Of a stretch of DNA of 64,000 nt, positions 3-54,764 are shown in pieces. A program made the position numbers and the translations under genes. Under the pieces are notes generated by a model. That model was not told the origin of the DNA. It did not search any database and saw only the letters and a program-made list of their open reading frames with translations. Position 1 is the stretch's first letter. Each line of letters starts with the position of its first letter. The stretch comes from an uncultured Thermofilaceae archaeon (GTDB lineage: Archaea; Thermoproteota; Thermoprotei; Thermofilales; Thermofilaceae), in the NCBI GenBank assembly GCA_938036345.1, contig CALHPJ010000011.1, forward strand, positions 1-64,000, given 5' to 3'.

Positions 3-218
3 CTCCTTTCATTTAACAAAAACCTGCTGATCGTAACTCCAACCAGGGTGTACATAGCGGATTTAGAGTCATCCAACAGCAGAGCGATTGGCAGCGCCTA
101 TGCGCTCTCGGCCGAGCCGCCCAATCCCTTCGGGCACTACGACTTTGCGTTACTAGCAAAGGAAATTAAAGAGGCGTTTTGGAGCTCTCGGGATGCCATT
201 AAAGCCGCTAGAGGTTGA
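3..218 (+). CDS. 3' end of an unidentified protein (cut by window edge)
   Basis: An open frame enters from the left edge and gives about 71 C-terminal residues, ending in TGA at 216-218. The visible part contains a hydrophobic strand (NKNLLIVTPTRVYIADL), a Pro-rich loop (AEPPNPFGHYDF) and an amphipathic C-terminal helix. I do not recognise the family. It overlaps the start of the MtmB-like gene by 26 nt on the same strand, so the two are probably co-transcribed with the UxaA-type genes that follow. Its N-terminal part, outside the window, would be needed to name it. Confidence 0.6.
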   Translation, partial: LLSFNKNLLIVTPTRVYIADLESSNSRAIGSAYALSAEPPNPFGHYDFALLAKEIKEAFWSSRDAIKAARG

Positions 219-36519: not shown

Positions 36520-37029
36520 TTACATGCCTGATATAACCTTCCAAATTTTATCCCCTGCATAGTGCAGGTTGCGGACGGCCCTACCCCTTTTCATGCTTCT
36601 CAGCTCCTCACTGCCAACGAGCGCCTGACCAACAGCGAAGACTCTCCGCTGGTTTGCATCGGCGACGTAGACTATGGTATCCCTATCAAACGTATCGAAA
36701 TCGACTATTCCCGGCGCCATAACATCGGCGCCGTTCAATATGTGCGGAACAGCGCCCATGTCCACCACGACTGTAGGCAGCTTGAGAGACAACTTAATGG
36801 CGGCCATTAAAGTGGGGTAGGCAATCTTCTCCGAGAGCACGATCGCAGGCACCTTGTCGACTATGACCAGCTCCAGCTCCGTATCCCTTAACCGGGCTAC
36901 TTCAACCGTCGCCGCGGTTTGGAGAAGCTCCGCGCCTGCGGGAAACTGGGATTTGAGAAGATCAACCAGCTTCCTTCTTTCGCTTTTACTGAGCTGGTGG
37001 CGCGAGCTGAAGGGGCTACGGCCGCTCAT
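36520..37029 (-). CDS. PUA-domain RNA-binding protein (Tma20/MCT1-like)
   Basis: A 169-residue protein with an N-terminal pre-PUA domain (LSKSERRKLVDLLKSQFP, about 13-30) and a C-terminal PUA domain (about 85-165). The PUA part includes LPTVVVDMGAVPHILNGADVM in pieces, PGIVDFDTFDRDTIVYV and RVFAVGQALVGSEEL, then GRAVRNLHYAGD. It resembles archaeal homologues of eukaryotic MCT1/Tma20, ribosome-associated factors. Its start overlaps the end of the EndA-type gene by 4 nt, so they are coupled. Confidence 0.85.
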   Translation of the reverse strand: MSGRSPFSSRHQLSKSERRKLVDLLKSQFPAGAELLQTAATVEVARLRDTELELVIVDKVPAIVLSEKIAYPTLMAAIKLSLKLPTVVVDMGAVPHILNGADVMAPGIVDFDTFDRDTIVYVADANQRRVFAVGQALVGSEELRSMKRGRAVRNLHYAGDKIWKVISGM

Positions 37030-37559
37030 ACTCCAATCACTTTATCGACCTTGTAATACGATATATTCCCCTCTTTGTCGACGATCGCGGTTACAAGCTC
37101 CCTCCTGGCCTCCAGCGCCCTCCTTATGAAAACTTCAACCTCCCTAAATCCTATTCTCTTTCCCTCCTCCAAGCAGACCACAAGGTAGCGCTTTTCGCCC
37201 TCTCTAGTTTTCCTATCCACTACTATAATCGGCTGCGAGCCGCTTATGACTTTCGCCTGCAAACCTCTACTTCTCAGATCCGAATACACTAGCAATTTCA
37301 CCCAAAAATCCGGGTCAGTTTTAGCCCCGAGCGTGACTATTTCCTCAAACGATATTCTCTTCCCGCCACTGTCGACAACCATTAGATCCCCTCTATCGAG
37401 CAGATAGGCGGCCTCGCATAAGTTGAGGAGTAAGTTTTCCCCCTCTACTTCTCCGTAACCCTTTTCAACAAGCTCCGCGCTGTACGGGATCTCTACATGC
37501 TCGCCTTTTAAAACCCCCCTGATAGCCTCACTTACCCCGCACCCCTCTCCTCCTGCCAC
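37026..37559 (-). CDS. tRNA-splicing endonuclease family subunit, probably non-catalytic
   Basis: A 177-residue protein with the archaeal EndA fold: an N-terminal domain (residues 20-80, LLLNLCEAAYLLDRGDL) and the C-terminal nuclease-like domain (FWVKLLVYSDLRSRGLQAKV, about 85-104). The catalytic triad of EndA is Tyr, His and Lys. Here the Tyr strand reads VISGSQPIIVV (104-114), the His site reads GEKRYLVV (121-128) and the Lys segment reads ARRELVTAIV, so none is evident. This pattern fits the structural subunit of the crenarchaeal heterotetrameric enzyme. The catalytic partner is not in the window. It is co-transcribed with the PUA gene. Confidence 0.75.
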   Translation of the reverse strand: MAGGEGCGVSEAIRGVLKGEHVEIPYSAELVEKGYGEVEGENLLLNLCEAAYLLDRGDLMVVDSGGKRISFEEIVTLGAKTDPDFWVKLLVYSDLRSRGLQAKVISGSQPIIVVDRKTREGEKRYLVVCLEEGKRIGFREVEVFIRRALEARRELVTAIVDKEGNISYYKVDKVIGV

Positions 37560-54336: not shown

Positions 54337-54350
54337 GTAGGGCCGCGGCC
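54337..54350 (-). promoter_or_regulatory. Trailer half of the permuted tRNA precursor helix
   Basis: On the minus strand GGCCGC-GGCCCTAC directly follows the 5' tRNA fragment and pairs with the leader GTAGGGCGCGGCC (54465-54477), 13 bp with one bulged base. This brings the two exon ends together in a bulge-helix-bulge-like structure. Confidence 0.75.
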
Positions 54351-54351
54351 T

Positions 54352-54458
54352 TTTGAACCACCGTCCTCGGGGTGGCTCCCCCGGGTTGTCCTCGAGTTAT
54401 GAGCCCCGCGGGATACCTGGCTTCCCCACCCCGCTGCTCCGTGGTAGCGGGGGGTGGA
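54352..54458 (-). tRNA. Circularly permuted tRNA-iMet (CAU) with canonical intron
   Basis: On the minus strand the tRNA 3' fragment comes first: T60 (54458), T-stem CCACC, acceptor CCCCGCT and A73 (54445), then CCA and a six-nt spacer. The 5' fragment starts at A1 (54435): acceptor AGCGGGG, D-arm GGGA/TCCC, and anticodon stem CGGGG with loop CTCATA. A 24-nt intron after position 37 (54374-54397) follows, then A-CCCCG, AGGAC, T-stem GGTGG and TTCAAA ending at position 59 (54352). Joined, acceptor and T-stem pair perfectly and the A1-U72 initiator signature is kept. The break at 59/60 is that reported for Thermofilum pendens tRNA-iMet. A TATA-like box (54502-54511) and a 13-bp leader-trailer helix flank it. 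Confidence 0.9.
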
Positions 54459-54464
54459 TTCTCC

Positions 54465-54477
54465 GGCCGCGCCCTAC
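54465..54477 (-). promoter_or_regulatory. Leader half of the permuted tRNA precursor helix
   Basis: GTAGGGCGCGGCC on the minus strand, seven bases (GGAGAA plus T60) before the T-stem 3' strand. Complementary to 54337-54350. Confidence 0.75.
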
Positions 54478-54501
54478 GAGCATTGAAGCTTTTCCTAGAG
54501 G

Positions 54502-54511
54502 GGATATAACC
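54502..54511 (-). promoter_or_regulatory. TATA-like box for the permuted tRNA
   Basis: GGTTATATCC on the minus strand, centred about 27 nt upstream of 54480, which places the transcript start just before the leader helix. Confidence 0.6.
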
Positions 54512-54548: not shown

Positions 54549-54764
54549 TTATGTCTCGGTGCCGCCACCGCTTAGCTTTGTGTCGAGCCACTCCATGTAA
54601 GCGTCGAATATGTTTGCCAGGTACACCAGATCGCTCTGCTCTAACTTTCTCATTATCCTTTTGATGTTCCTTTCCTCTATTTTAGAAAACTTTGGGTTCT
54701 TTCTTAAAACTTTAAGTATGGATTCTATCAGCATGTCTTTGGCCTTAACGTCCTCCTGCGCCAC
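54549..54764 (-). CDS. Small charged hypothetical protein
   Basis: A 71-residue, highly charged, helical protein (KAKDMLIESILKVLRKNPKF, EERNIKRIMRKLEQSDLVYL, LANIFDAYMEWLDTKL) with no recognised family. The ATG start and sensible composition favour a real gene. It lies just upstream of the permuted tRNA promoter on the same strand; its stop is about 40 nt before the TATA box. Could be a small nucleic-acid- or protein-binding factor; nothing in the sequence decides this. Confidence 0.5.
   Translation of the reverse strand: MAQEDVKAKDMLIESILKVLRKNPKFSKIEERNIKRIMRKLEQSDLVYLANIFDAYMEWLDTKLSGGGTET

What the first reader, a model, noticed from the sequence alone, without database searches (positions are those of the whole stretch)
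54337..54511. Circularly permuted, intron-containing initiator tRNA gene
Seen: on the minus strand the tRNA 3' fragment (T60-A73, then CCA) precedes the 5' fragment (A1-A59), separated by a 9-nt stretch (CCACGGAGC). Acceptor (AGCGGGG/CCCCGCT) and T-stem (GGTGG/CCACC) pair only when the ends are rejoined at 59/60. A 24-nt intron interrupts 37/38, a 13-bp helix joins leader and trailer, and a TATA-like box sits about 27 nt upstream. Known: permuted tRNA-iMet and tRNA-Tyr were described in Thermofilum pendens with the break in the T-loop. Inferred: this locus supplies the cell's initiator tRNA after endonuclease cutting, circularisation and end trimming, and ties the genome to Thermofilales.
Basis: partly seen in the sequence, partly recalled or inferred. 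Interest (0 to 1): 0.9.

Follow-up and report, generated by a model that had tools for sequence, protein, structure and literature searches.

The report
Rearranged start-tRNA gene in Thermofilaceae archaeon
The gene for the tRNA that starts every protein is stored with its two halves in swapped order and must be cut and rejoined as RNA to work; this oddity was known from one archaeon, Thermofilum pendens, and here it proves to be shared by most of its family members in which the gene could be found.

Summary
On the minus strand, 54458-54352, the 3' part of an initiator tRNA-Met (T60-A73 plus CCA) lies upstream of its 5' part (A1-A59), with 6 nt between them after the CCA. A 24-nt intron sits at 37/38 and a 13-bp leader/trailer helix encloses the unit. 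Rejoined, it reads as tRNA-Met(CAU). No other iMet was found in the genome (92% complete).

It is a new member of a known kind: permuted iMet and Tyr were described in T. pendens in 2011, with the same 59/60 join. T. pendens is one of the relatives recovered here.

What I add:
(a) 12 permuted iMet genes across Thermofilales and 6 permuted Tyr genes, one of them in this genome outside the window.
(b) Strong covariation of the leader/trailer helix, and a bulge-helix-bulge at 59/60.
(c) A TATA-like box 45-52 nt from T60 in 17 of 18 genes, with no fixed distance to A1.
(d) Two splicing-endonuclease family genes (one in the window) and an RtcB ligase gene.
(e) A sister genus (g5) with ordinary-order iMet, one genome carrying a relic second 5' half downstream. 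This suggests a reversal but does not prove it.

Processing through a circular RNA is inferred.

The parts
54504..54509 (-). TATA-like box TTATAT, 51 nt upstream of T60
   Evidence: Read directly. The same 45-52 nt distance to T60 is found in 17 of 18 permuted genes.
54465..54477 (-). Leader strand of the leader/trailer helix (GTAGGGCGCGGCC)
   Evidence: Pairs with the trailer, 13 bp with one bulged G; covaries across relatives.
54459..54464 (-). Leader strand of the central helix (GGAG) and the first two bulge nt (AA) before the cut at T60
   Evidence: Pairs with T54-C56 (3 of 4 pairs in this gene); 94% of cells paired across relatives.
54445..54458 (-). 3' part of tRNA-iMet, T60-A73
   Evidence: Sequence; ARAGORN on the rejoined sequence.
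54442..54444 (-). Encoded CCA end
   Evidence: Sequence; encoded in all 18 permuted genes.
54436..54441 (-). Spacer CGGAGC between the 3' and 5' parts
   Evidence: Sequence; 1-25 nt in relatives.
54352..54435 (-). 5' part of tRNA-iMet, A1-A59, including the intron
   Evidence: Sequence; conserved in relatives.
54374..54397 (-). 24-nt intron at 37/38
   Evidence: Called by ARAGORN on the rejoined sequence.
54337..54350 (-). Trailer strand of the leader/trailer helix
   Evidence: Complementarity and covariation.
37026..37559 (-). Splicing-endonuclease family subunit gene (177 aa), likely part of the enzyme that cuts this precursor
   Evidence: PF02778 and PF01974 matches; one of two such genes in the genome.

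Best explanation
This is the cell's initiator tRNA-Met gene, circularly permuted at 59/60. Transcription starts near the leader helix. The precursor folds so that acceptor stem and T-stem form across the permuted order and leader pairs with trailer. The T-stem, the pairing of T54-R57 with the leader, and the leader/trailer helix form a bulge-helix-bulge with cuts after A59 and before T60. The two-subunit splicing endonuclease cuts there and at the 37/38 intron. RtcB ligase joins A59 to T60, giving a circular pre-tRNA. RNase P and a 3' nuclease then remove the 6-nt spacer and free A1 and the CCA end. Shown here: the gene order, the lack of another detectable iMet, the covarying precursor fold, the promoter position, and the presence of endonuclease and ligase genes. 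Inferred: start site, cutting, circle, ligation and trimming.
For: Direct reading; ARAGORN tRNA-Met(cat) on the rejoined sequence; no other iMet in the genome; 12 permuted iMet and 6 permuted Tyr genes in the order; leader/trailer pairing 11.0 of 12 positions within a gene against 6.2 across genes; covariation score 0.769 against 0.217 in shuffles; TATA-like box fixed relative to T60; two PF01974 genes and RtcB; published T. pendens precedent (PMC3218864).
Against: No RNA data. The genome is 92% complete, so an ordinary iMet could lie in unassembled sequence. In this gene the central helix has one A.G mismatch and the leader/trailer helix one bulged G. The unconstrained MFE fold at 37 C is a different one. 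RNase P and tRNase Z genes were not searched for.
Confidence: 0.95

Rival explanations
1. The locus is a decayed or chimeric remnant (tandem duplication or integration scar), and the working iMet lies in unassembled sequence.
For: About 8% of the genome is missing; a decayed 5' half does occur in a relative, G015.
Against: Every stem pairs, the intron and CCA are intact, and the leader/trailer helix is kept by compensatory changes across genera. In the closed chromosome G026 and in T. pendens the permuted gene is found as well and no ordinary one was seen.
Confidence: 0.03
2. The two parts are separate transcripts joined in trans, as in split tRNA genes.
For: Split iMet exists in Nanoarchaeum equitans (Table 1 of PMC3218864).
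Against: The parts are only 6 nt apart (1-25 nt in relatives), leaving no room for a second promoter. The TATA-like box keeps its distance to T60, not to A1.
Confidence: 0.02
3. On the origin of the arrangement: permutation arose independently several times (iMet in the g1/g6 lineage, in g7 and in f7) or moved by gene transfer, and the ordinary gene of g5 is simply ancestral.
For: The outgroup genomes G002, G004 and G008 are ordinary; three gains explain iMet without any reversal and two gains explain Tyr; leader and trailer of G010 resemble those of g7.
Against: One more step than a single gain plus one reversal; all gains would have to hit the same 59/60 position; the 5'-half relic in G015 would need another cause.
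Confidence: 0.5

Closest known systems
Permuted tRNA-iMet(CAU) of Thermofilum pendens (Chan, Cozen and Lowe 2011, PMC3218864)
   Same: Same isotype, 59/60 junction, intron at 37/38, encoded CCA, short spacer (7 nt there, 6 here), single copy. Promoter at -72 from A1 there; the box spans about -74 to -69 here.
   Different: Another genus. Intron, spacer, leader and trailer sequences differ.
Permuted tRNA-Tyr(GUA) of T. pendens (PMC3218864)
   Same: Same junction and logic; a homologue exists in this genome.
   Different: Other isotype; spacer of 1-25 nt.
T-loop (59/60) permuted tRNAs of the red alga Cyanidioschyzon merolae (reviewed in PMC3978253)
   Same: Same split position. A circular intermediate was demonstrated for algal permuted tRNAs.
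   Different: No encoded CCA; unrelated sequences; thought to be of independent origin (PMC3218864, PMC3978253).
Split (trans-spliced) archaeal tRNAs, such as Nanoarchaeum equitans iMet
   Same: Joining at a bulge-helix-bulge by the splicing machinery.
   Different: There the halves lie at separate loci; here they are in one unit.

Membership tests
Circularly permuted tRNA genes | 3' half upstream of the 5' half on the same strand, with a short spacer | tested here: met
Circularly permuted tRNA genes | The rejoined halves form a complete tRNA | tested here: met
   ARAGORN tRNA-Met(cat) with intron
Circularly permuted tRNA genes | Bulge-helix-bulge formed by leader and trailer at the junction | tested here: met
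   relaxed in this gene (3 of 4 central pairs, one bulged G in the outer helix)
Circularly permuted tRNA genes | Circular RNA intermediate | not testable with these tools
   Needs RNA sequencing; unproven in archaea according to PMC3978253
Archaeal initiator tRNA-Met | CAU anticodon, A1:U72 pair and three G:C pairs at the base of the anticodon stem | tested here: met
   Sequence; the other CAT tRNAs of the genome (L010, L020) begin with G1
T. pendens type permuted iMet | 59/60 junction, encoded CCA, no ordinary iMet in the genome | tested here: met
   the genome is 92% complete
Split (trans-spliced) tRNA genes | Halves transcribed from separate loci | tested here: not met
   Halves 6 nt apart; TATA-like box upstream of the 3' part, at a distance fixed to T60

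The most novel reading that the evidence does not exclude
The permuted iMet arose once, before the split of Thermofilaceae and its sister family f7, and was later turned back into an ordinary 5'-3' gene in genus g5 by tandem duplication of the permuted unit. The decaying second 5' half downstream of the ordinary iMet in G015 would be the scar. tRNA gene order would then be reversible, and permutation an evolutionary phase that can be left again.
Probability: 0.4. Interest if true: 0.6.

Novelty: new member of a known kind. Interest (0 to 1): 0.42.

Why it matters
Permuted tRNA genes in archaea had been reported from one species. Here they appear to supply an essential single-copy tRNA across a family, with the precursor structure kept by compensatory changes. 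That allows the archaeal pathway to be tested by comparison, and it gives a set of related ordinary and permuted iMet genes in which the origin and possible reversal of permutation can be studied. It also shows that a general tRNA finder (ARAGORN) and the Rfam tRNA model miss the initiator tRNA in such genomes.

Tried and rejected
Other permuted isotypes were sought with a generic 59/60 model (R1) over 27 genomes: apart from permuted iMet, the high-scoring hits that were read were ordinary or tandem tRNAs. The printed list was cut off, so weaker candidates were not all seen; the permuted Tyr genes came from BLAST instead. Two bacterial hits of the genome-wide pattern scan (L165, L166) have no tRNA body and are chance. 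Contamination as the source of the permuted gene in G010 was considered: its contig has a GC content (0.47) like that of other G010 contigs (0.40-0.48), mildly against it; gene transfer is not excluded. iMet genes of either order were sought in ten genomes without a hit, by covariance model and by patterns, and none was found.

Full report
Observation. The minus strand of 54480-54336 was read directly. The order is: TATA-like box 54509-54504; leader helix strand 54477-54465; GGAG AA; T60 at 54458; T-stem and acceptor 3' strands; A73 at 54445; CCA 54444-54442; spacer CGGAGC 54441-54436; A1 at 54435; anticodon CAT 54401-54399; 24-nt intron 54397-54374; A59 at 54352; bulge A; trailer helix strand 54350-54337. 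ARAGORN finds no tRNA there as it stands but calls tRNA-Met(cat) with a 24-nt intron once the parts are rejoined at 59/60.

Is it the only initiator tRNA? A BLAST of the mature iMet against the own genome (1.52 Mb, 24 contigs, 92% complete) finds only the three pieces of this locus plus one 14-nt match. The Rfam tRNA model finds 38 ordinary tRNAs. I read their anticodons by eye: the two with CAT look like elongator Met and Ile2, and both begin with G1. An iMet covariance model (R2) finds no complete iMet elsewhere in the genome.

Relatives. The permuted locus was searched against all 27 held genomes of the order and the hits were read as DNA. Permuted iMet is in 12: this genome (g1), G017-G019 (g6), G020-G026 (g7) and G010 (another family, f7). 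G021 is T. pendens: its hit covers the published coordinate 539254(-) (PMC3218864). G026 has the published chromosome length of T. uzonense, 1,611,988 bp (PMC4673724). A pattern scan of the genome collection finds the arrangement in Thermofilum, Thermofilaceae and Thermofilales records and in one unnamed archaeal record (G010), plus two chance bacterial matches. The scan demanded a spacer of at most 30 nt and this acceptor sequence, and records near the window may be left out, so it is not a full census.

Permuted tRNA-Tyr. T. pendens also has a permuted Tyr. A homologue was found in the own genome outside the window (G000:C1:78048-78202) and in G016-G019. G020, G023, G013, G010, G009, G006 and G005 have Tyr in ordinary order.

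Junction structure. In the 18 permuted genes (12 iMet, 6 Tyr) leader and trailer pair with each other: on average 11.0 of 12 positions within a gene, against 6.2 (sd 2.1) when leaders and trailers of different genes are combined. On the gap-free junction alignment A3, 96.4% of cells pair, against 66.2% in shuffles and at most 49.1% in slid versions, and all 12 leader/trailer pairs show changes on both sides. The central helix joins T54-T55-C56-R57 to the leader: genes with TTCG have CG.. in the leader, and genes with TTCA mostly TG.., a compensated change. This gives a bulge-helix-bulge with cuts A58A59^N and NN^T60. In this gene the central helix has one A.G mismatch and the outer helix one bulged G. 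Two nucleotides of the G018 leader were left out of A3 to keep register, so that row was fitted by hand; without this its ungapped count is 3 of 12.

Transcription. The TATA-like box lies 45-52 nt from T60 in 17 of 18 genes (in T. pendens Tyr the best-scoring box is nearer), while its distance to A1 ranges from 63 to 90 nt in those 17. The promoter is therefore tied to the permuted unit as a whole. In T. pendens the published distance to A1 is -72 (PMC3218864); here the box spans about -74 to -69.

Processing enzymes. The genome has two PF01974 splicing-endonuclease family genes, one of them in the window at 37026-37559. This fits the two-subunit enzyme reported for T. pendens, which accepts strict and relaxed motifs (PMC3978253). 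An RtcB ligase gene is present. RNase P and tRNase Z were not searched for.

Mechanism. Shown by sequence: the permuted order, the absence of another detectable iMet, the conserved precursor fold, the promoter position, and the endonuclease and ligase genes. Inferred: cutting, ligation into a circle, and removal of the spacer by RNase P and a 3' nuclease. CCA is encoded in all 18 permuted genes (the pattern used to extract them required it, but none of the BLAST-found permuted loci was lost by it), against 13 of 38 ordinary tRNAs of this genome, counted by eye. The MFE fold of the isolated precursor at 37 C is another one; at 85 C it contains the leader/trailer helix, T-stem and acceptor stem.

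Evolution. A species tree from RpoB and EF-2 (rooted on families f2-f6) puts g5 as sister of g7. Both g5 genomes have iMet in ordinary order with a 37/38 intron, as G002, G004 and G008 of other families have ordinary order. Parsimony needs two steps for one gain in the common ancestor of f7 and Thermofilaceae plus one reversal in g5, or three independent gains; if a reversal costs twice a gain, the two are equal. In G015, 16 nt after the CCA of the ordinary iMet, there is a decayed second 5' half that ends at the 37/38 splice site. That is the order expected when a tandem duplication converts one arrangement into the other (model reviewed in PMC3978253). The direction is not settled, because no iMet could be found in g2, g3 or g4 and the position of G010 is weakly supported.

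Verdict. It is a new member of a known kind. The searches of the held library returned no report of permuted archaeal tRNA genes outside T. pendens (most papers were judged by title and abstract only), and curated tRNA databases could not be checked.

Noticed in passing
G000:C1:78048-78202 (L198), same genome, outside the window: A second permuted gene, tRNA-Tyr(GTA), also split at 59/60, with a canonical intron and apparently a second intron in the variable arm.
   Followed up: partly
L053 / L315 (G015 contig C163), about 180-215, minus strand: Relic of a second iMet 5' half, 16 nt downstream of an ordinary-order iMet, ending at the 37/38 splice site.
   Followed up: partly
G001, G003, G005, G006, G007, G009, G011, G012, G013, G016: No iMet gene of either order was detected in these ten assemblies, some of them 93-95% complete: missing from the assembly, or broken up in another way.
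   Followed up: partly
37026-37559, minus strand: Splicing-endonuclease family subunit gene within the window; a second one lies on contig C18.
   Followed up: yes
54549-54764, minus strand: A 71-codon ORF just upstream of the tRNA promoter, same strand, possibly a small protein gene; not tested for relatives.
   Followed up: no
whole genome G000: Ordinary genes for His(GTG), Glu(TTC), Pro(TGG), Arg(CCG) and some Leu tRNAs were not seen among the 38 Rfam hits (anticodons read by eye); they may be multi-intron, rearranged or unassembled.
   Followed up: no
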